Source of the DNA: Onchocerca volvulus
Lineage: Eukaryota; Nematoda; Chromadorea; Rhabditida; Onchocercidae
Assembly: GCA_000499405.2 (NCBI GenBank)
Contig: HG738138.1
Span: forward strand, 10,476,888 to 10,540,887
DNA length: 64,000 bases
Direction: 5' to 3'
Part shown: piece after piece, positions 4,101 to 43,495 of the stretch
Numbering within the stretch: the first letter of the stretch is position 1
Layout: every line of letters begins with the position of its first letter
The notes under the pieces: model-generated
Databases searched by the model: none
The model's input: the letters and a program-made list of their open reading frames with translations, nothing else
Told to the model about the DNA's origin: nothing
Made by a program: the position numbers and the translations under genes

Positions 4101-6311
4101 TGAAATTTAGATCTATTGACTTGAGGCAAATAAACATAATTATCATTGATTGATGAGAAAATGCTTTTGTGTTGGAAGTATGTTACATGATCATAGTTTA
4201 ATAAAGTTTTTATAAAAAGGGATCACAGTCAATCCTTTCTTTATATTTTACTAGAAATTTTCTTGGCCTTTTTAACAAATATCAAAAAGCTTCAATAGTT
4301 ATCAAATTTCCAATAAGCATGATGTGAAGAGCTGCGATTTCTCGCTCAAAATTTTTTGCATAAAATTTGAAATAATATTTTTGAATTTTACTATTTATTT
4401 GAGCACTAATTATTTTCTTATCTTAATAGTAAAATAATCCATCCATCTTATCACTGTCATTTGTTGCCGTTATTCCATCAATCAGCCAAGATTAATATTT
4501 TATATTTAGGCATGTATGTCTTGGTTGAAGTAAGTCTTTTTTAGTTAAGCTTAACAATAGCTATGTAATTACGCTAACAGCATATGTAAAATCGCATTAA
4601 GAATTTACCAAAGCTGAAATTAATGCATTATACAAATTGATATTTATGATCAAAATTTGAAATACAATTTTCTCAGCTTTACTGATAAACAATCGTTGGG
4701 CATGTATGATTCTTTTTTCTGAAATATTTTAAATTTAAATAAATTTGACCGACAAAATTCTGAATTCTAGCAACAAGGTGCAGTATGTGAATTCTTCTGG
4801 AAAACAACACTTGTCAGTTATCCAATATCACTTGCTGCACAAACTTCATCAGTATGGACCTGCGTAGCTATTACTGTTGATCGGTAAATTTTGTTAAGCA
4901 TATTCATGAATTGTTTTTAATTATTTTATTTGCAATAATAAATGACAATTTTGTATATTTGAATATATAATAATTGAAAATTTTTCAATTATTGGTATTT
5001 TGTTTTCTACGGAAACCGTTATTAGTAATATTAAACATTTTTCACTTAAAGATAAGAATTTAAAAATCGGTAATTTAATCCAAATGCTGAGAATTTATTA
5101 TATGCGAAAAACTATGAAAGTTTTTCATTATGAATATCTTAATCAGTGCAGTTAAATTATGCAAATCGAAAAATTAGCGCAAAATGTGAGAAAAGTATGA
5201 GCAACTTTCAGATTTTTAGCTGTAAAATATCCATTACAAACTCGAGTATGGTGTTCTACATCACGTGCTAAATTGGTTTTATCAGTAATAGCAACGGTAT
5301 CATTCGTTTACAAATTACCATCACTGTTCGAATTGACTCTGGATGAGTGTGGCCGTTTGTCACCAACGCCATTACGTACCAACGGTCTTTATATCGTTCT
5401 ATATAATACCTACGGTTATTTGTTACTATTGATTATCATTCCCTGGACAACCATGATTGTCCTAAATGTTATTGTTATCCGATCGGTGCAACATGCTTAC
5501 CGCATTCGTCGCTCTCTGATAAGTCATACCGGAAATTTGGATGAAAAAGAACGGCACTGTACAGTTATGGCTTTTGTTATGATTTTAACATTTATTGCTT
5601 GCAATTTAATGGCTGGTATTAATCAGATCATCGAAGCATTCTTTGCCGAATATTCTCAATTCTTTCGCTTACGTTTACCTATTGGAAATTTATTGGTGTG
5701 CGTTAACAGGTTTACAACTTTCTTCTGCATTAGCATATTTTAGCACCTGAGAATAAATTCAAATTGATCATATTTAAATTGGTATCCGAAAGATGACTGT
5801 TTGATGAATCCTTCTTCTTAATTAGCTTTTCTGGATAAAAAAATTGAAAATAATTAAAATTAAATGTTCTTTAATACACAGTCTTTTTACTCAATTGATT
5901 TTTTTCAAAAAAAAAAAAAAAGAGAAAAATTGCAATATTCTTCTTAATTTCAGTGCTTCAAATATTTTAATTTATTCAATATTTGGTCGTAAATTTCGAC
6001 GGATTTGTGCAGCACTTTTGTGTCCATGTATTATTAACCGTAATTACAAACGGATGAAAGCACTTGGACTCAATGAATTAACAAATCATTTATGGAATAA
6101 GCTTTCGAATCAAGCCGGACAGGTTACTTTTTTGACGATTATAATGACTGGTAATAAATATCCAATATTTTCAGAAATGATGGCAGGCATTCATCACATT
6201 TTAATATCTTTCATCGAAATTAACATTTGTACTACTTTAATAAAATCCAATAATACTATTTCATTAAAAGCCAATAATACTATTTCAGTAAAATACAAAT
6301 TCAAATTATGA
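1145..6311 (+). CDS. FMRFamide-receptor-like class A GPCR
   Basis: Rhodopsin-type seven-transmembrane receptor, most like the nematode/insect FMRFamide (FRPR) receptors, so probably a neuronal plasma-membrane peptide receptor. Exons: 1145-1429, 4771-4883, 5212-5709, 5954-6311; phases agree at every junction and give 417 aa. TM1-TM2 are in exon 1, including the segment NIYLAGLSFFDLILLL. Exon 2 carries the TM3 cysteine and FFWKTTLVSYPISL, ending in the DRF version of the DRY motif (residues 132-134), followed by LAVKYPLQTR. Exon 3 has TM4-TM6. TM7 ends with NSASNILIYS (298-307, NPxxY equivalent), then GRKFRRIC. Intron 1 is unusually long (3.3 kb). The tail after residue ~358 is simple and holds a duplicated SNNTIS/ANNTIS unit; a possible donor (CAG|GTTACT near 6122) could give another C-terminus. 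The ligand cannot be read from sequence. Confidence 0.85.
6251..6294 (+). repeat. Short tandem duplication in the GPCR tail
   Basis: Two copies of a ~24 bp unit (core CAATAATACTATTTCA) encode the repeated NNTIS peptide at the end of the receptor ORF. It keeps frame, as a 24 bp period must. Confidence 0.8.
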
Positions 6312-11094: not shown

Positions 11095-14000
11095 GTTTGG
11101 TAACGGGGGTTAAATGTTCAAATTTATTACGTCTTGAGCCACCACCACTTAATAATAGTCGATATGTGGTTCGAGTTGATCGCAAATTTCGCATTTCTTG
11201 CATATGCCAGCAGACTTCTATAAATTGCATGCATCTTACATGGAGGAATGAATTCGGTCGTAAAATAGACGGCGAATCTTCTAACAGGTAGTAACATCGT
11301 TTTAACTGTAAAGCATTTTCGCAAATTCAGTAATAAATTGTGATGCACCTTGATAAGATATTAAATTACTTCAACAATTCAAAGCATTACTTAATCAATA
11401 AACATAATTTAACGCACTGATATGAGGTGAAATTTTATTATTTTGCTTCGATTCATATCTTTCTGTTATCTGATAAGTTTGGGCTGAACTGTTTCATTAC
11501 ACTCGTCGGCAAAATATTGCTTAAAAGTACTGGGTAAGAAATTACTGCTAACGTTTTAATTTATAAATTAGATAATTATTCACCTTATTTTATGTTTAAC
11601 TTGAGCTATAGATTCTTAATTTCTTATATTTTTCTAGCTTATTTACTGTAAAATTACGAGAGCATGATTCAATGTACAAAAAATTATCATTGGTATTCAC
11701 CCAAATTGCAAAACGTGATACCGGATTCTACAGATGTGTTGCCAGGAATTCCAAAAGGATGTCGGCCGACTGGAAAGTGGAACTCATTGTCGTTGGTATT
11801 AAATTTCCAATTTGAAATGCAAAGAAAAAGAAGATCGAATTAATTGTATTAAACAATATCAAAAGGATGGAAAATGTTCTGTCTGTAAAATAAAAGATAA
11901 ATGTTTCCAGATGAAATTCGTTGGAAAGAAAGTAATGATATTGTTGGAGGAATGCTTGGCGAATCATTAACCATTGATTGTGGATCCACTGGAAATCCAC
12001 AACCTGAAACACATATTACGAATCACAAAGGATTGCCGCTTGATGGTTTACTTTGACTTCATCCTATTATAATTTTTGCTAGTACGAAGTGAATCTTGGC
12101 ATTAAATTAAATCAAGTAATATTCGAAAATTTTTGTGTTCATGAAGTAGGGTGATTAATTCAGATTCTTTTTGCACAAATGTCTTGAACTTATGACAAGC
12201 ATTTGGCCATGCCGGCGAATTTTATAATCAGAGACAAGATCTCAAAATTTTGGCAGAAAGATGATGCAAGTAGAAAACAAAAATTACTCAGATTTATTTC
12301 AAAGTTGCTTCGCAACTCGTTGTACTATCATTCCATGAATTATGATAATAGAACATTCCTGAAGAGTGCAAAAGATTTGGAAGAAATTTAATATTGAACG
12401 ATTATACTCTAAAAGTGATGTAATCAATGATTAGTGAGACTCGTTAATGAAAGAGTTATAATTTTTATATGATTAAAATCAAATAAAAAATAGTGACTGG
12501 TCAATTTTTATTATTGCATCGCATATTTCAAACTGTTATATATTGTTTTCTAAATTGAAAGTATTAACATCAGTTAATTCAGGTAATTTAAAATGAAGCA
12601 GAATAAGTTTGAATGTAATTCTAATTTCTTCGATATTCATATTTGTAGAGACTTTATTCGTCACGGCTGGATCAGAAGTAACTGTTAAAAAGCTTACGAA
12701 TGAATACCAAGAGACAATCATCAAATGCTTATCAGTTCAGGAATTCGAGCAATACAGTGCAACAGTTGTTGAAGAACACGAAATTCGATTGGATGTTTGG
12801 TGTATCTGTTTGATACTTTTTCTCAATTATTTTTGAAATCAGAAAGAATGAAAGAAACGCCTCCTACGTCATAATTATTTTTCGTCTTATAAAGGTAGAA
12901 CACAAAAGAAAAATGACGCCGCTCTCTAAGAATGATAGCATTTTAGCTTTGAAATTATATTTGAAACAAAACTTTGATCAGAAAAAGGTTTTAAATATTT
13001 TCTTTTAACCATCAGGTCAAAAGAAATGCAACTATCTCAGTATAAAATACAAAAAAAAGTTCAATAATTTTATGAATAATTTTAGCGTCACCGAAATTCA
13101 GCAAATCGTTTGTGGAACGTTTTATTGTTTTGGATCATTTAGCTCAAATTTGTTGTAATGTGACCCGGTCGAATCCACCTGCTACGCATTTTCGATATTT
13201 GAGAGGTAGTAATGAACTCTGCAACGATAGCAATCATGTTATTTTGATTGATGCTTTAAATCAAAGTAGTTGTCTCAAGGTAACTTCATTTCTAGATTTT
13301 CTAAATTATTTTAATTTAACTTTTATAACAATACACCGATTGTTGTACTTTTCTGCGACATCTAATGCTCTTTTAAATATTTCCAAAGCAATTTTTTGTA
13401 AAATTGAAGGGTCATTCTTTATTTCTCGACATATCGATTTTCTTGCCCTTTTGTTATGATACTAATTATTTAACTCGAAGATTCTCCACTTTTTATTAAT
13501 TTATTAATTTACATCAAATGAAGATTTTATCGCCAACGGAATATGATTTGGGGGAATACCGATGCGAAGTAAGTAATGGAAAGTCCAAATCGCAACAAAC
13601 AATCGCAGTTAAAGAAGCAAGTATGGAATTTTTTGTTTTGTTGACGCATTTCAGTTGGAGAAATTTCATTGTAATTTCTAGAAAAAAATTTTACGTCACA
13701 TCTTCACCTAATGAAATTCACGTTTTGCTACAGAATGTTCGGATGACTTATGTAATTTGGAAAGTGTTAATTTCTGAGCAAAATCTTCTTTTATAGCTCC
13801 ACCTGGTGAAGTTCACGTTTCACTGCAAAATGTTGGGATGACTTATGTGATATGGAAAATTGAAGAAGGATTTGGCGAACAATTACCAATACGACGTTAT
13901 ATTATAGAATATATTAAGAAATCCATTCTGGATCAAGTATGTAATTTGTTTCTTCGGTCAATTGAATTTTATGAATTTTTAATTCTTGCTTTTCTGTTTC

Positions 14001-14589
14001 CGTCGAATGATGTGTGAATATCTGCAACATTTCGTCAATTTTTATTGTTTCCTTAAAAAAAAAAAAAAAAAGATTAGGAAAATTTTTCAGACCGTGAACC
14101 AGTGACTAATTTCAGAGTCGTGATCAAACTAGAGGAAATAATCGTGTCTGGTTTACCTATGCTATCAAAATGGATGTACATTTAAGTAAGTTAATTGTTT
14201 TTCTTTTTTTGCTGCAAAAGTTTTTCTCATCAATGCAAAAATGTTGTCTCATTAAAGTTATATTTTTATTAAAATAACAGAAAAAATATAATTAATCCAA
14301 ATAAATGGTACAACATAATGTGTGTTATACGTGATACCATAGTTCATCTATTGAAATTTCATAATTTGTAGGTAAAGATGGATTATATGAAGTTGGTGGA
14401 TTACGTCAAGGAACAACTTATATATTCAGATTTGCGGCGGAGAATGAAGCTGGAATTGGTGATACTGTTACTATAGCGGTAAAAACAACCTCGAAAATCA
14501 AATTATCCAAGCTTACACGATCTTCTTCGTCATCTTTCCAGCAATTCACATTTATCGCTTTTTTTCTTTACTTTTTTCCTGTATGGTAA
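11095..14589 (+). CDS. Ig-superfamily cell-surface protein, 3 Ig + FN3, GPI-like tail
   Basis: Neural-type adhesion/signalling protein. Exons: 11095-11287, 11638-11795, 11911-12045, 12649-12801, 13086-13279, 13524-13620, 13797-13936, 14116-14185, 14372-14589; all phases agree and give about 451 aa after the missing leader. Ig1 has cysteines in FRISCICQQ and GFYRCVARN with the core Trp in LTWRNE. Ig2 has LTIDCGSTGNP and IIKCLSV. Ig3 has AQICCNVTRSNPPA and GEYRCEVSNGKS. An FN3 domain follows (VIWKIEEGFG, RYIIEYI, GTTYIFRFAAENEAGIG). The end is a Ser-rich linker and a short hydrophobic tail FTFIAFFLYFFPVW with no cytoplasmic part, as in GPI-anchored proteins. The layout resembles C. elegans RIG-3/NCAM-like proteins; orthology is not established. 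The N-terminal exon is unresolved. Confidence 0.85.
13703..13791 (+). pseudogene. Decayed duplicate of the FN3 exon start
   Basis: This intronic segment matches the start of the FN3 exon (13798 onward) at a 95 bp offset. It reads EIHVLLQNVRMTYVIWKV against EVHVSLQNVGMTYVIWKI in the real exon. It runs into a stop just before the real exon's acceptor. The whole intron 13621-13796 is open in frame with the upstream Ig3 exon, so intron retention would give a truncated product lacking FN3 and the anchor. Confidence 0.85.
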
Positions 14590-28238: not shown

Positions 28239-31200
28239 ATGGATGTAACGTCGATACTGACTGAAAAATATTCGAATACGGAAAGAGCTGGTGGAAGTGG
28301 GTCCGGTGGAGTATCAGCTGAAAATGTGAAATTGGCACAAGCACATGCAGAACGAAGCACCTTATCAAGACATTCATCTAAAGATGTTAGCGAGGATGGT
28401 TGTTGCCTTGCTAAAATATTCCTCTCTAATATCGTGTCATTTGCAACGTGAGTTCATTTTTGTTTATTTTATTCCATCATTTGTTGGCTCATATACAGAG
28501 TATGAATGCATGCATAAAATTATACGTTCACTTTTCTTTGTTATTGTTTTCTGAGTTTAACTTAGTGTGTTACTAAGATTGTACATCACAAGATGACAAC
28601 TTAGTAGTGTTATTATACAGAGCGCAAAAATTGCATATGACAACTTTTTTATTGATATCCAGAAATACATTACTCGAATGATGTCAATAATTTTTATCAT
28701 TTAGTATTTGTTATTTAATCTTATGATCTTATCACACCTAATCAATCTTTCTTTACTTGTTTTCTGAATCACTCCTACACAGTTTGGAGCTAATTTTTGC
28801 AGAATTTGTTGTTCAATAGTTTGGGAATCAAATAAATCTTAACTGGTCCGGATATAATTTTTGTCTTAATATATTATCAGTCTTGTTGTTCAATCATTCA
28901 ACTCATAAATCCCGTAAAATATATGACAGAAGTATTTGTTTGATTGCACAAATCAAATGTTTTTATTCTGAGAGTAAATCAAATTCTTTAGTTTGAAGTA
29001 TGTGTATTTTGAAAGCTATATTGTTTTTCGGTTACATATTTTATGAAAGGATATTATTATTTTGAATAATCTTTCGGAAAATTCAATACAGAATCAGATT
29101 AGTGCAAATCATTTTCAGGAGATCGCGGCGGAAAGGTGTGAATGAGAGATGCCGTTCAACACGACGTATGTCATCAAATGGAGGGAAGAATGCGAACATA
29201 TGCATCCATGCTCCAAATTGTAAACGTAAAGCACTCTCTGAAATGGGAGTGTGCGATTCTTTCGATGATGAAGTAAAAATATTGTTTTGTTGCACTATTT
29301 TGATATTATTTTAGCCATCAGTTCTCTAAGTTTAATCATAAGTATTTTGGATGAACATGTAGTACATATGCTTAACTAAGTGCAAGATACGGCATAGTAA
29401 AGTGGAATTTATTTAAATAGAAACAATGAGCACAGCATTGCCAAACAGAATTAGTTTGCAAAAAGCAGGCAAATAATTCATTCTTTTTTTTTTTTTTCAG
29501 ATGATTAGGCGACTTTCCAAACTACCTCAAGGAATGGACAAAAATGAATGGTTGGCTACACACAGTAGGTTATGCGCTTATTATTTTCGTAAGCTTGGAT
29601 GGCTGTAGCTTATAAACACATTTAAAGCCTAAGAAATTATAACGTTAATGCTAAAATTCACTAAACAAGAACATATTTCAGCATTATCTCTTTTCGAGAA
29701 TGTAAATGCTTTATGTGGAACAATATCGGAAGTATGCACTCCAGTCTCTTGCCCTATTATGTCCTATCCAGGTGTTCCGTAAGTTTCGCTCTATTTCTTA
29801 TACTTTTTTGTCAGTCTTCGATATAATTAACTGAGAAAGCCATTCTTCGATAATGTGACAAATTGCATTTGCTTAGATCCAGCACCGTGTTTTTAAGTTT
29901 GAAATTGTTTCTTAGTACTTTCTATTTTCTTAGTACTTTCTATTGTTTCTGATTTACTTTTGGTAACATTGCTCTGCTTGCAAATCACTTTTGCTAATGT
30001 TTACTTTTTATTATTTTTAGTCTGTAGGATATAATTCTCGATCAGAAAGCTGTTAGAGATATGACACCATATTTAAGTTTTATGAAATCTATTATCAAAA
30101 AAGTTCAAAAAGAGAATATCGAAATATTAGTTCAAGAAGAGAATGTTGAGATGTCTAGTGATAAATATCTTCAAAACAACATTTCAGATTTTGTTTTCTG
30201 CAGTTTGAAAAATATACGGAGAGTAAATTTTTAATAAATTCATATAATAATTGCTGCAAAAAAAAAAAAAAAAAAATGCAGGAAAGCACACTGGATTGAT
30301 GAAAGAAGGAAACATCATCCATATTCTGCTATGCAATACATCGATTGTGTATTATCATTCTGCGAAAAAAGCGCAAAAGATGAGCGACTTTATCCAACTA
30401 AATATGGTAAAATTTCGAGATTATTAAATTTTTTTAACGTAGCAGAGGTCATATGCCAAAATCATAACATCTGTAAAGGAGGTAAAAAAAAAATTGTAAA
30501 AGAGGGATGAAATAATGGGTTTCATTTTCGGTCGCTTATAATTTTTAAGCTTCTCGCTTTTCCATTCTGTCCACTAGTATATTATTGTAAAAAATATCTG
30601 ATAGTAGAACACTGCTATATATTTACAAATACAGGACGTTTTAATGAACATCCTGTACTTGTAAATAATAAAAGAAAGCAGTATTTTTTGACCTGATATT
30701 AATTTGAAAGTTGTTTTCAGTTTTACTAATTCTTGTAATATTTATGGTTATGTTCTTTCAGGATCTGCTTTCTCGAATAATTTTGAGAATCACTGTCGTC
30801 GTCTAATACGGCTACTCTGGCACAGTTGTGGACACCTATACACGAATCATTGGGAACAGCTAGCCACTTTGAATCTGCGGTCTCAGTATGGCTTAGTTGT
30901 GGCACATATGTACTCTATTGCTAAAATGTATGATCTTCTGGAGAGTAAGGAACTGTCCGCTCTTTCACATACTTTGCAGGTAAAAAGTTTGTTCTGAATG
31001 TCATCTATTTGAGTATATTGTTAACATTCTTAATGTTTATTCCAAATCATTTTTCTGACTACCCACATTCCTATCATGTAGTGCATTATTAAAATTGATA
31101 TTATTACAGTTGGTACGTCCAGCAATGGTGTACCATGGATGTGGTCATCAGATGATACAACTTAGCGATGGATCCAACGGTTCTCAGCAATTCCCATCAT

Positions 31201-32331: not shown

Positions 32332-34611
32332 TTAAAGTTCCGCAGGATCATGTTTATTTAGTTGCTCACCGTAATCAGTTGCTTGCGACCCAACGAATGT
32401 ATCATAATGATCCAGAATCTCCTTTAGAGATAGCTTTCCATCCTGCAAAAATGACAGACTCAAAGACTGCGTTCTTCGAAATGAGGATTCCGACACTTGT
32501 AAAGTTAATGAGCCATTTCAAGCATTCACGAACTCTAAAACTTTCATCTTCTTCATATATCTAATCTGGTCAAGTGATAAGTTATTTCATTTGAAAGATG
32601 AGTAGAACTACAATCTTATTTCCACAATTCTCGAAACAGTGTTGAAATGGAAGGATGGTGTTCAAAGGAGAAAACATTATTAAATAAATGGGACATCTCA
32701 TATACTGCACTTACTCTGTCTTCATCAGCGATACCAATTAAGTGTTTTGCTTCTGCGTCGGCATGATCGAAACCTATAGGCATTATCCAGTCTCTCATTT
32801 CATCCTAAAATGTAGGTAGCAAAACAATGTCTAACTGATTATGCGAAGAGAAAATGAATGCAAAGCTCCTAATTTAAGAGAATAGTTTTTAATAATACTT
32901 GATCTAGTTTGCCGTCACCGTTTTTGTCCCTATGCTCTTTGAACATTTCCCGTTCACTTGCAACCCATTCCGGTTCTTTGCCATTTAATTCTGGGTAGTC
33001 TTCCGGCCTGTACATGTCACCTGTAAGGATAAAAATTAACATTTTACTCTATTTACAACGTTAAGCAAATGCGATGCAGAGATAATTTGTTAACTCTAAG
33101 CTGTGAAAACAGTTGTCCCTCACTCAAAAATTAGCTTTGTATGAAAAAAAATTATAAGAAGCTTTGTATGAAAAAAAGTTGTAAGAAGAAATCACTTTTT
33201 CATATTCCGCTATTTCTATGAACATTACGCATGATTGGTGATGGACTTACCGATATATTCATCAAGATCTACATATCCATCTTTGTTTTTATCAATGTCT
33301 TCGAGTGTCTCCTAAAAATAACAAAATTTAAAATACCTCAACATATTTTTGGGTTAATAAAGCATTCCAAGAATGATATAATCTGAATAACTTTCATACT
33401 GATATGATTTGTACATTTCATCATTTGCAAAAAATATTTAATCTTACATTCTGTTTTGTTACTCTCTAATCACCTGGACAACAATATCACGCATGTGATC
33501 GCAATCCTCAGGATGCATAAAACAACCATATTCAGTTCGATCCATCATTTCATCCAAATCATAATCAGCCTTTTTCCACCTTTTTTCATCACGTGCCATC
33601 ATCTTTTGATATTCAGGACTCAGCTCTTGTCCTTCACCCACTGTTCCATAAACCATTTCTCTGAAATCTCAACATTTTATTCTATTTAGCACTAACTAAC
33701 AAATAAGAGAAGGCATTCTGAAAACGACTAGCATCAACTCACACGTAATCTTTCCATGAGATTTTCCCATCCTTAATTTTTTCCGCATTATAATTTTTCC
33801 ATGTTCGATCAACATCATTATTAACATATCGTTTTTGCATAAAATCAATGTGATCCTTTAGTTCAGTTTCCTCCAAGAAGCCATCACCATTTACGTCCAT
33901 TTTCGCAACTAACTTTCTGAAAACTTCAGCTTGATTCAAACTCATCATCACCACTTGCTAAAGTTTGTAAAACTTGGTGTTAAACATAAATTTGCTGCAA
34001 TAATTTAAGAAAAACATATTTCAAGAACTGGACTTTCATTTGCTACATGAATCTGTTAGTAGCTTTAGACACTGCTTAATATGCTATTTGATGTCTACAA
34101 CATGTTATAAATACGCAATTACATATAAACTAAGGAATTCCTACACAAACAAATTATTGGCAGTCTGACCAGATCAAAGTAAATGTCATATAAATAGCGT
34201 CGTATTCCGCTAGAAAATGTTCAGCGAACATTTGCACTTTGCGGTACATTACACGAAATCTTTAAGAAAACTTAATTTCTGGGATAATAATGGCCACCAA
34301 ACACTTACGCAAGGCGTTCTTTGCTTACGACGTCTTTTGATTCTGCAGTATCTTTACCGAGAAAGGCTTCATGGTCAAATCTGCTGTCATGTCCGCCAGC
34401 CTTAAAATTATAATGTCTTCGAAGATCAAATCAAAAAAAAAAAAAAAATGAAATGATACCAGCTCAGGTGTAACTTAAATTTCGCAAACTGCGAGTATAC
34501 AAACAACATAACCGGAAGAAAAACCTTGAAATGATCCTTATCAGTGAGCGGATCGACTTGCTCCGCTTTTGCAAATACAAAAAGCGCACCAAACGCAAAC
34601 CATACATACAT
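32332..34611 (-). CDS. calu-1: Calumenin (CREC family EF-hand protein)
   Basis: Low-affinity calcium-binding protein of the secretory pathway. Exons: 34611-34525, 34400-34309, 33916-33743, 33660-33474, 33311-33251, 33020-32899, 32804-32715, 32442-32332; all phases agree and give 307 aa, the usual calumenin size. Signal peptide [16 protein letters not shown] is followed by [12 protein letters not shown]. Clear EF-hand loops are at residues 67-78 ([12 protein letters not shown]), 187-198 ([12 protein letters not shown]), 232-243 ([12 protein letters not shown]) and 268-279 ([12 protein letters not shown], split across the last intron). Two degenerate loops lie between the first and second of these. 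The protein ends HDPAEL, close to but not a standard HDEL retrieval signal. A TTTTCAG about 95 bp upstream of the ATG may be a trans-splice site. Some donors are weak (first: AAG|GTTTTT). Confidence 0.93.
33134..33185. repeat. 26 bp tandem duplication in a calumenin intron
   Basis: Two copies of a unit beginning GCTTTGTATGAAAAAAA lie within the intron 33021-33250. Confidence 0.85.
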
Positions 34612-37328: not shown

Positions 37329-38347
37329 CTCTAAGTAATGACTGTTTTGATCGCTTTTTTCATTACTTTTTTGAAATGAAAACAGAATAAGATTAACTGA
37401 TTAAAGCAGAACTATTTTTTTCATTATACTATTAAATGATTAATAATGTTCTTCCTCCTTTTTTTTCTTTTTTTTTTTAAAAAATAAAGTGTTTCTTTCC
37501 TTTAAAAAACTAAGTTAGTATAAAGTAATCGATTATAGCTTGTTGCTGCTGCCAGTTCGATCGCTAACAACAATAACATCAATAACTTCGCATTGTTTGC
37601 TGTCATTAATATTATCATTGTCAGTATCAATATATCAGTTGTTGCAGTATCATTAACTTCGTCGTTTCAAAATTTCCAATTAAAAAAAGTCTCATATGAA
37701 CATTTGTTTTCAATCAGCATAGCTTCTCGTCTTCATATTTCGCTTTTGCTTTACACAAAAATCCCTTTCTTTCAAATTTTTTCCAATCTACTTCATAAAT
37801 GACTCATTTGAAAAATTTTATTTACTCCCTCTCATCATCTTTACTTTGTTTATTAGTTTTTCTTAGAAAATCTCACATAAACGTTTGGTGGAAGAATGAG
37901 ACGAAGCATTGCAAATGTTCTCGAAGGATCCGGGTAACTTGTTTTGATTTCAGTACAGTTGTTTATTTACTAGATATTATTTCATATATCACTTTTCTGT
38001 ATTCCGTTTCTTGAATTAATTTTTTCGCCTTTTTTAATGATATTTATTTAAAAATAATAATTTATTCAAACATTCATGTTTATTACAATTGTGTAAAAGT
38101 ATTTATTTACTTTTTTTTTTGAAGCGATCATGTCAACATAAGTGACCTTTATCTAAAAATTCATTTTTCAAATCAATATCGAGAATTTCGAATCAAATAA
38201 CACAGAAATGGCAAAGTTTCAAGTAGTAGTAGAATTTAAAAATTTCAAAATAGTGATGCAATTTTTGATAAGCGTGATTCAAAATCGGTACAATCTTGAG
38301 CGTAAACTTCAGTTTAGAAATTTTTTTTCCTTGTTTTTTATAAGAGT

Positions 38348-38359: not shown

Positions 38360-38378
38360 AATTTTACCTGTTGGAACA

Positions 38379-39126
38379 ATGAAATCTCGACAAGAAGTTA
38401 CAAATCACATTTTGTCTGCAAAAGTCCAAAATGGAATTACATGGAAATCAGTAGCGGCGAAAATTGGTAAAAGCAAAGAATGGACAACTGCAGCATGCTT
38501 AGGTCAAATGGCCATGTCAAAGCAACAGGCGGAAAAAATTGCTGAAATATTTGATTTACCAGAAAGTGCTCTCTCATGGCTTCAAACAGTACCTCAAAAA
38601 GGTGCACCAGGAATTCCCTCTGATCCAGTTCTTTATCGATTACATGAGGTTATTCATATCTTTGCTATCAAAATATACTTACTTATTTATCCATAAATTT
38701 ATTTCGAAAAAATTTTTTCCATCCATGTTTTTTACTGCTAGAAAAAATTGAGAGAGAAAATGTCAACTACACTGTTGTTGATTTGTGCGAAATTTAATCA
38801 TTGTTCTGAAGGCGTTTAACGGATCGTCTTTATACCAGAATTGTGGAAAACTTTGTACCGAAGTTTTCTGGATGCTAGCAGAAGTAAAAGAATTTTGTAA
38901 CATTAGAGAAATTAAATTATCATATGATAAAATTGAATTCTAATGACATATTAAGATCATGGCAGTATATGGACCAACGATTAAGGAGCTAATTGTGGAA
39001 GAATTTGGTGATGGTATAATGAGTGCAATTGATTTTAATTTAACCGTTGCGCGTGAAAAAAATGAAGGAGGTGACCGAGTGTCACTTGTATTATCGGGCA
39101 AGTTCTTGCCTTATAAAGATTTCTAA
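38379..39126 (+). CDS. cynS: Cyanate hydratase (cyanase)
   Basis: Catalyses bicarbonate-dependent breakdown of cyanate to ammonia and CO2. Exons 38379-38648 and 38956-39126 join in phase 0, giving 146 aa, within the family's usual 145-156. The N-terminal helical domain shows ITWKSVAAKIGKSKEWTTAA and LGQMAMSKQQAEKIAEIF. The catalytic domain shows PSDPVLYRLHE, IMAVYGPTIKELIVEEFGDG and IMSAIDF, and ends LSGKFLPYKDF. All three catalytic residues of the E. coli enzyme have counterparts: Arg and Glu of YRLHE (residues 87 and 90) and Ser of IMSAID (113). The intron falls directly after the catalytic Glu. Cyanase is mainly bacterial, fungal and plant, and patchy in animals, where lateral transfer has been proposed. 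The intron and AT-rich codon use suggest an established nuclear gene, not contamination. The adjoining decayed copy of its last 65 bp is listed separately. Confidence 0.95.
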
Positions 39127-40796: not shown

Positions 40797-43495
40797 CTAT
40801 AAATGTGTATAGTTGCTTGGAAATGTGCTGGTATTGTTGTTGTTTACCAGTTTTACAGGGGAACTAATACCTTGTAGCTTATGTCGTGATACGGATGCTT
40901 TCTTCGTAAATCTTCGGGGTACGAAGTGAACTCGTATGAATACTAATGACATACGACGAAACTGCTCGTTGAATGCAAGAAATACGAAGAATGGCGTAGC
41001 AGCATTAATTACTGATAACAGGTTGTTACCATGTGCTAATATACAAATATTATTGCCATGATCTGAACTATCTGCACCTATAAGAAAAAAAAAAATCTTT
41101 TTTATATTTAAAATTTATTTTCGAATAACGCAAATCCTGTCATAAATTATTTCAAGTATTTTAAAAACATCAACTTTAGATTTAATTGGAAATACTAAAT
41201 TTCGCAATTTTACTTTTTAGATCAAATTGAATATCAGAAACATTAATTTTAATATCTTAAATTCAAAAACAAAGTATTCGCTTTTTGTTGTTAATTTATG
41301 CTAACTCATATATTGAATTGAATGATAACCTTTTCTTGCAACAGCAGCAAACGTTAGCAATGCAGGTCCTTCTAGTAAAAGATGTGATAGTGTTGTTGCA
41401 ACGGTCATTCTAATCACGCACTTTCGACGTTGACTAAATGATTCGCCATGTTGCTGAAATTTCGTCTAATAATTTTGCTTGCATCAAAATTACATGCATG
41501 CATGCAAACGATTTTATTTAAATTTAATTCAATTACTGCATGCATGCATCAATTTTATCTTAATTTCATCCAGATCATATTGGAGAAATGGAAATAGATG
41601 ATTAATTTGAAGTAGACGTAGTTTATGATATATTATTGCTGCTGTTAATAAATCAGATCAATTACCTTGAAACTAAATTGCATGACAATTAATACAGAGC
41701 ATGCAAGCATGGCGATAGTTGGGATAAGAATAGAGAGTGTTATTTGCAACCAATAATATGCTTTTTGTACATATTCATAAAATGGTCCCCTATATGTTTG
41801 CATAAAATACTGATTGGTGATCCAATAACATCTGATAAAAGTTTAAATTTCATTAAAATGATATATGAAATGGATAGGAATAAATTACTTATTTAATTAA
41901 AATATTAATTTATTTTTTGGAAAACCTATTATGTTGTCGACTATCCAGTTCCTTCAATATCGTGCTGCTGATAACTGTTTGAATGAATATAAATGGTATA
42001 TGCAAGAAAATGCTGCATAGCAAGAAGCCAAGTAGTATGATCAAACTTCTTCGTTTAGTGCAAATTTGACGAAAATGAAATGGTAATAATACACAGAGTA
42101 CTGTTTCAATTGTTATCACTAATGTCATCCTGAAATTAATTCGAATTGCTGATGTGCTATTTTCCACAGATATGTTGATAAAGCAGATGTTGCATAGTCG
42201 TAGTCGAGGAATTTTTGTCATATAATCAATAACTGAATTATAAAGTCGATACGATCAAATTCAAAATACTGAAATCATTTGGCTACTTAGCATTAATTTG
42301 AGATGATATGGTCGTTGCATAATAAAATGCAATCTGTCGTTACCTAAATTTAAATTTAAATTTAATTCTTCAAAAAAATAGACGTGAAATACTATGACGA
42401 ACCATGTCGATAATGTGCCGCTTATGCTAGCTGCCGCAATGACGTATGGTTTTGTGTACCAGTAAAATGATTCAAATGCTGGATCTGCATGCACAGTCCA
42501 CGCATGTATCACCTTGCAAAATTATTTTAAATTCATTTTTTTAAATATTAGTTTCAAATGTTTAAAAAAATTTGAAGAATTCGAAAACTGTAGAATTTTC
42601 CAAAATTTTATATGATTAAAGTTTGGAAAATTGAAATTCTAAAAGTTAGTTTTTTCTTTTTTTAACATTTCAATTACTGAAAATGTCATTTTATAAAACT
42701 TTAAGAACTAACCTCAAAAACTCTTGATTCAACAAAAACCAAATTTGCATAAGTCTTCACTTTAAGAAAATGAACCGATGTGCTACCTTGAAAGTAAGGT
42801 AATCGATATATGAGCAAATTTAGAATATTTCCAGAAAGACATAATAACTGTAGTATTGGCATCGCGAATTGATTAATTTGCCTTTCCACTTGACCGCAGG
42901 CACTATCATAACCACTGTTATGGATATATTGCGGCACTAAGATTTGAAATATTTAAATTATAATTAAAATTTCATTTCTTAATTTTTTTTCCTTTCCTGA
43001 GTGGAAAATATGCGATGAAGAGGAAATAAACAAACGCTACGTTAAAGTAATTGCAAAATAATAAAAATGATGAACTACCACATTTATTGATATATTTTGC
43101 AAATTTTTCATGAAAACATCATTTTTTTTTTCGATCCAAGCTTGATGAGAGAGATATTACTAAAAAAGGTCTCTAATAAAATAATATTTCAGGAATATTA
43201 ATATAATTTTAAGCCAGCCATCGTATAATAAAACTGCGTTTTTTTTAAATTTTCATTACAGAGAAAGTGCTTTTACTTGATAAATTATATAATTTCAATT
43301 TGAAATGTCTAATTTTTTACTAAACAAAAATGACAAACATGAAAGATTCGCCGGGCATTGCTGAATTCCTTTTTTCTCAAATGCTACCAATGCTGCTAAA
43401 TTACTCAAACAATCGGATAACTGCATTTTTTTGCCAAATGCGACCTCGCATCTGTGCAACAGACGCATTTCCAATGGCATTACAGTAGTATTCAT
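40797..43495 (-). CDS. Peptide-type class A GPCR lacking the DRY arginine
   Basis: Divergent rhodopsin-like nematode receptor. Exons: 43495-43405, 42936-42713, 42512-42403, 42129-41926, 41831-41666, 41453-41330, 41077-40797; all phases agree and give 399 aa. TM1 is MPILQLLCLSGNILNLLIYR (a GN motif). TM3 runs through ISGTLSTW joined to MTLVITIETVLCVLLPF. The family position for DRY/ERY reads E150-T151, so the arginine is replaced by threonine. ICL2 is FHFRQICTKRRS. TM5 is WLQITLSILIPTIAMLAC. Exon 6 carries FSQRRKCVIRMTVATT of TM6. TM7 is NNLLSVINAATPFFVFLAFN (324-343), then QFRRMS. The TM7 style recalls C. elegans AEX-2/AEXR-like and related peptide receptors. The first exon (MNTTVMPLEMRLL...) is the weakest part, supported only by phase. 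The exon 3 donor (GTTCGT) is weak but gives the correct TM3. Confidence 0.83.
41493..41550. repeat. Paired TGCATGCATGCA blocks in a GPCR intron
   Basis: Two self-complementary GCAT runs about 40 bp apart lie within the intron 41454-41665. They could fold as a stem or may simply be microsatellite. Confidence 0.7.

What the first reader, a model, noticed from the sequence alone, without database searches (positions are those of the whole stretch)
38379..39126. Intron-bearing cyanase in a nematode genome
The sequence directly shows a full-length cyanase with all three catalytic residues and a phase-0 intron directly after the catalytic Glu. From family knowledge, cyanases are bacterial, fungal and plant enzymes with scattered animal occurrences attributed to lateral transfer. 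I infer ancient acquisition followed by intron gain and AT-adjustment. A role in cyanate or carbamoyl-phosphate by-product detoxification is possible.
Basis: partly seen in the sequence, partly recalled or inferred. Interest (0 to 1): 0.75.

Follow-up and report, generated by a model that had tools for sequence, protein, structure and literature searches.

The report
Known bacterial-type cyanase in filarial worm

Summary
An intact cyanase (Pfam CYNS_N and Cyanate_lyase; Arg, Glu, Ser at the catalytic spacing) lies at 38379-39126 with a phase-0 intron after the catalytic Glu. The gene model was incomplete: an upstream exon (37896-37933) and a second intron give three exons and 165 aa, identical to a deposited Onchocerca protein. 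Each domain has one match in the genome, about 10.5 Mb into a contig, near eukaryotic exons: not contamination. The closest named non-nematode hits are Pseudomonadota (60-64% identity). In a 78-row tree the 17 clade III/IV nematode rows form one group among bacteria (93/97), weaker (69/66) in a trimmed tree; one transfer is favoured, not proved. The main story is in print: Zarlenga et al. 2022 (PMC9079694) reports O. volvulus, Brugia and Loa cyanases with two introns and a proteobacterial source. Ordinary, already known.

The parts
37857..37866 (+). TTTTTCTTAG, possible spliced-leader (trans-splice) acceptor, 29 nt before the first ATG
   Evidence: string position; function inferred, no RNA data
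   Evidence: the spliced product equals P0001 exactly; peptide conserved in P0001-P0004; codons for ANVLEGSG found once in the genome
37934..38359 (+). intron 1, 426 nt, GT...TTTTTCAG
38360..38648 (+). exon 2: rest of the leader, CYNS_N domain, start of the catalytic domain up to Glu109
38649..38955 (+). intron 2, 307 nt, phase 0, GTTATT...ATTAAG
38956..39126 (+). exon 3: catalytic C-terminal domain with Ser132 and stop
30692..30994 (+). neighbour: open frame with a Mob1/phocein exon, eukaryotic
   Evidence: E 2e-14, over the cut-off
33742..33957 (-). neighbour: open frame with an EF-hand exon (calumenin-like by eye)
   Evidence: E 1.4e-5, under the family cut-off (24.8 of 25.4 bits)

Best explanation
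A chromosomal, intron-bearing cyanase (cyanate hydratase, EC 4.2.1.104) of an Onchocerca worm. An ancestor of nematode clades III and IV acquired it from a gammaproteobacterium-like donor and passed it on vertically. The enzyme joins cyanate with bicarbonate to carbamate, which falls apart to ammonia and CO2. In this worm it most likely removes cyanate of outside origin (host urea breakdown, peroxidase oxidation of thiocyanate, possibly the Wolbachia symbiont) before it carbamylates proteins. Shown here: gene structure, catalytic residues, one match per domain in the genome, chromosomal setting, bacterial affinity. Inferred: activity, expression and physiological role.
For: Two Pfam domains over cut-off; 13 of 14 PDB sequences matched are named cyanate hydratase or lyase; catalytic residues kept; spliced product identical to a deposited Onchocerca cyanate hydratase; one match per domain; placed among Pseudomonadota; PMC9079694 reports cyanases with two introns in O. 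volvulus, Brugia and Loa and a proteobacterial source; no match to carbamoyl-phosphate synthetase or transcarbamoylase families, while multi-exon alpha-carbonic anhydrases were found by the same method.
Against: No expression, splicing or enzyme data seen for this species. The intron 2 acceptor is unusual. Single origin of the clade III/IV gene is not statistically secured: support falls to 69/66 in the trimmed tree, and alternatives were not rejected (p-AU 0.18-0.31). My trees hold no plant, fungal, mite or clade I nematode rows. The whole-genome search has limits: PF02560 rang in only 1 of 14 controls and PF21291 in 0 of 14, though E. coli, one of the controls, is known for cynS (recalled), so copy number and the absence of the carbamoyl-phosphate pathway are not proven.
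Confidence: 0.87

Rival explanations
1. Two or more separate bacterial transfers, one into clade III and one into clade IV nematodes.
For: Trees that group clade III or clade IV alone with the deletion-bearing bacteria were not rejected (p-AU 0.305 and 0.176; 0.236 and 0.246). PMC9079694 leaves one or more events open.
Against: All 17 nematode rows are one side of a branch at 93/97 and still group at 69/66 in the trimmed tree of 16; the alternatives cost 11-22 log-likelihood units.
Confidence: 0.25
2. Bacterial contamination of the assembly.
For: None found beyond the bacterial likeness of the protein.
Against: Two introns; about 10.5 Mb into contig C3; Mob1, GPCR and (weaker) EF-hand exons in the same window; orthologues with the same leader in three other filarial genera.
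Confidence: 0.01
3. Vertical animal gene kept from the metazoan ancestor and lost elsewhere.
For: Cyanases occur in scattered animals (PMC9079694, PMC8776842 passages). I built no tree with plant, fungal, mite or clade I nematode cyanases.
Against: The listed bacterial hits are 60-64% identical, about 200 bits, against 90.8 bits for PDB 5uk3 (spider mite by recall) and 77.8 for 6xgt (fungus by recall); the gene lies among Pseudomonadota; clade I nematode cyanases go with plants (as published).
Confidence: 0.04
4. Decaying or unexpressed relic.
For: Weak intron 2 acceptor; no RNA data available.
Against: Intact frame, catalytic residues kept, 84-90% identity over the body among four filarial genera.
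Confidence: 0.04

Closest known systems
Clade III and IV nematode cyanases (Zarlenga et al. 2022, PMC9079694, citing Zarlenga et al. 2016 and 2019)
   Same: Same genus reported (O. volvulus), two introns in clade IIIc members, grouped with proteobacterial cyanases.
   Different: I add exon coordinates, the leader peptide and the shared two-residue deletion; those authors' sequences and tree files were not seen, so they may hold the same.
Cyanases of marine Gammaproteobacteria (Spongiibacter P0013, Marinobacterium P0015)
   Same: 63-64% identity and the same two-residue deletion.
   Different: 147-aa bacterial proteins without the filarial leader.
E. coli CynS (PDB 1dw9)
   Same: Sequence family and catalytic residues.
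   Different: Lower score (100 bits), no deletion. No beta-carbonic anhydrase family (PF00484) match was found in this worm; the E. coli cynT partner is recalled.
Clade I nematode cyanase (Trichinella), tested enzyme
   Same: Nematode cyanase; the recombinant enzyme is active as reported in PMC9079694. That paper says Trichinella lacks functional CPS genes, as seems to hold here.
   Different: Plant/algal affinity and no intron, as published; separate acquisition.

Membership tests
Cyanase (CynS, EC 4.2.1.104) | N-terminal CYNS_N and C-terminal Cyanate_lyase domains over the curated cut-offs | tested here: met
   90.6 bits (cut-off 27.1) and 109.9 bits (cut-off 25)
Cyanase (CynS, EC 4.2.1.104) | Catalytic Arg, Glu, Ser with spacing 3 and 23 (motif recalled) | tested here: met
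   R106, E109, S132; invariant in the 15-row alignment
Cyanase (CynS, EC 4.2.1.104) | Bicarbonate-dependent breakdown of cyanate; decamer | not testable with these tools
   needs purified protein
Clade III/IV nematode cyanase acquired from bacteria | Groups with other clade III/IV nematodes among bacterial cyanases | tested here: met
   (93/97); weaker (69/66)
Clade III/IV nematode cyanase acquired from bacteria | Two introns in filarial members (PMC9079694) | tested here: met
Clade III/IV nematode cyanase acquired from bacteria | Single transfer event | tested here: inconclusive
   AU tests did not reject alternatives
Clade III/IV nematode cyanase acquired from bacteria | Intron positions shared with other nematodes | not tested
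   no other nematode genomic DNA was fetched

The most novel reading that the evidence does not exclude
One transfer from a deletion-bearing gammaproteobacterium into the ancestor of clades III and IV. Filariae then added a conserved leader exon that makes a second, relocated isoform (165 aa from exon 1, 146 aa if translation starts in exon 2), so that worms without their own carbamoyl-phosphate pathway handle cyanate made by the host or by Wolbachia.
Probability: 0.12. Interest if true: 0.45.

Novelty: already known. Interest (0 to 1): 0.2.

Why it matters
It is a clean example of an old bacterial gene fixed in parasitic nematodes, whose mammalian hosts lack the enzyme (PMC9079694, passage). 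The apparent absence of a worm carbamoyl-phosphate pathway points to host or symbiont as the cyanate source, which can be tested.

Tried and rejected
Contamination: rejected on contig position, introns and neighbours. Exon 1 copied from another gene in this genome: a degenerate pattern for ANVLEGSG found only this place (1 forward, 0 reverse, reversed-pattern control 0), so there is no sign of a donor exon. Leader as a mitochondrial presequence: a crude measure, hydrophobic moment 0.58, reached by 15% of 2000 shuffles, gives no support; no presequence predictor was available. Two-residue deletion as a single-origin marker: weakened, because one further bacterium (P0102, named Pseudomonas sp.) carries it away from the main group and the trimmed tree needs three changes. 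Carbamoyl-phosphate synthetase: PF02786 rang in this genome (4 matches), but Biotin_carb_C lies beside the three that sit together (C3:9051056-9051604), so I read that gene as a biotin-dependent carboxylase; the fourth, weak match on C2 is unexplained. Literature: Zarlenga 2019 (PMC6422719) is not held, so nothing of it was seen. The paper search for filarial carbamoyl phosphate gave one unrelated paper. Intron positions in other nematodes and RNA-seq could not be tested. No structure was predicted.

Rows dropped: of 372 cyanase sequences (292 proteins, 80 loci), 75 and three PDB rows went into tree 1 (11 clade III, 6 clade IV, 14 deletion-bearing bacteria, 44 others). P0222 (near copy) and P0136 (191 aa) were left out; the others were limited to 140-165 aa and thinned at 80% identity. 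Tree 2 dropped ten more rows: six long or divergent bacteria, P0007 and the three PDB rows. The deletion could be read in 359 of 372 sequences: 32 with it, 327 without, 13 unread. Each protein search scored about 8000 candidates and listed 120.

Full report
What is there. The product matches Pfam CYNS_N and Cyanate_lyase well above their cut-offs, and 14 PDB sequences at E up to 0.001, 13 of them named cyanate hydratase or lyase and one called uncharacterized. Arg106, Glu109 and Ser132 sit at the catalytic spacing (E. coli numbering R96/E99/S122 recalled).

What was missed. Those residues come from an upstream exon at 37896-37933 joined across a 426-base GT...TTTTTCAG intron, plus the start of exon 2; the three-exon translation equals P0001 exactly. 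Four of the nine spirurine records (P0001-P0004 of P0001-P0009) include the leader. Its first 13 residues are 92-100% identical in all six pairs of these four, whereas the next six are 17-50% identical and the body 84-90%. Of the other five records, P0005 and P0006 start at the internal Met and P0007-P0009 within three residues of it, so either predictions or real starts differ. The intron 2 acceptor is AAG, the only choice after the preceding in-frame stop.

Setting. The window lies at C3:10476888-10540887 of a 94.7-Mb, 115-contig assembly, and each cyanase domain has one match in it. The same search rang PF02560 in 1 of 14 control genomes and PF21291 in 0 of 14, although E. coli is among the controls and is known for cynS (recalled), so the tool can miss copies. 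Of 20 open frames that I chose from the window (445 have 45 aa or more), three matched Pfam at E 0.001: a GPCR exon (5201-5740 +) and a Mob1 exon (30692-30994 +), both over the cut-offs, and an EF-hand exon (33742-33957 -) just under it. This is nuclear animal DNA, not contamination. The species is not fixed beyond Onchocerca.

Ancestry. Protein searches returned nematode relatives from clade III (Wuchereria, Litomosoides, Elaeophora, Acanthocheilonema, Setaria, Gongylonema, Thelazia, Toxocara, Anisakis) and clade IV (Steinernema, Aphelenchoides, Ditylenchus), and bacteria at 60-64% identity to the window's protein. Only the best 120 hits of each search are listed, so absence of other animals from these lists is not evidence; Strongyloides and Meloidogyne were not seen. 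A genome-contig scan gave 80 bacterial loci; of the 28 drawn in the tree, 26 are Pseudomonadota and 2 Actinomycetota. In the 78-row tree the 17 nematode rows form one group at 93/97, with clade IV at 95/81 and clade III at 62/30. In a 68-row tree without long branches and PDB rows the nematode group of 16 falls to 69/66, seen in 62% of 200 bootstrap trees, and clades III and IV are then not each one group. In both, the bootstrap had not settled. AU tests did not reject grouping clade III alone, clade IV alone, or both with the deletion-bearing bacteria (p 0.18-0.49). The trees hold no plant, fungal, mite or clade I nematode rows; the distance to those rests on PDB scores and on PMC9079694. So bacterial affinity is firm, and a single transfer is likely but unproved.

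A shared gap. Between the WL and DP motifs all 18 nematode sequences lack two residues. Of 359 sequences in which the stretch could be read (of 372), 32 lack them: these 18 and 14 others, including Spongiibacter and Marinobacterium. Thirteen of the 14 group together at 100/95, one (P0102) stands apart, and the trait needs three changes on the trimmed tree. It hints at the donor type but is not proof.

How it works. By family knowledge, cyanase joins cyanate and bicarbonate to carbamate, giving ammonia and CO2. In this genome PF00988, PF02787, PF02729 and PF00185 gave no match, each ringing in 14 of 14 control genomes; those controls are prokaryotes without split genes. PF02786 gave four matches: three beside a biotin-carboxylase domain and one weak site elsewhere. 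Alpha-carbonic anhydrases, also multi-exon, were found by the same method (15 matches); the beta class was not (controls 9 of 14). So outside sources are more likely: host urea (opening of the abstract of PMC9010765), thiocyanate oxidation by peroxidases (recalled; PMC7503669 seen only as a listing with the opening of its abstract), or Wolbachia (inference). PMC9079694 argues for host-derived cyanate in Trichinella (section 8 part 1 of 2).

Already in print. PMC9079694 (abstract, first parts of sections 4, 5 and 8, and passages) states that clade III and IV cyanases group with proteobacterial ones and that B. malayi, O. volvulus and L. loa genes have two introns. It cites Zarlenga 2019, which I could not open. 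PMC8776842 (passages) reports cyanase transfer in metazoans in general; PMC3511272, PMC4413825 and PMC5664098 (passages) list cyanate lyase among transferred genes of root-knot or plant-parasitic nematodes. In the passages read I saw no mention of the leader peptide or of the shared deletion; I made no dedicated search for either (paper searches).

Verdict. A real, intact, already reported horizontally acquired cyanase; the small additions do not change its kind. Interest 0.2.

Noticed in passing
37896-37933: Exon 1 codes a 13-residue leader (with the split codon) 92-100% identical across four filarial genera, although the next six residues vary freely; its role is unknown.
   Followed up: partly
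38949-38955: Intron 2 ends in ATATTAAG, a non-consensus acceptor, but it holds the only AG after the preceding in-frame stop.
   Followed up: partly
whole genome G000: No match to carbamoyl-phosphate synthetase (PF00988, PF02787), aspartate/ornithine transcarbamoylase or beta-carbonic anhydrase families; several multi-exon alpha-carbonic anhydrase loci are present.
   Followed up: partly
P0007 (Gongylonema pulchrum protein): A roughly 23-residue stretch is repeated in tandem inside this cyanase, perhaps a gene-model or assembly error.
   Followed up: no
41910-43495, minus strand: Exons that look by eye like a seven-transmembrane receptor downstream of the cyanase; no Pfam match at E 0.001 for the four frames scanned.
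   Followed up: no
11612-14586, plus strand: Exons resembling Ig and fibronectin-III domains by eye; the two frames scanned had no Pfam match at E 0.001.
   Followed up: no
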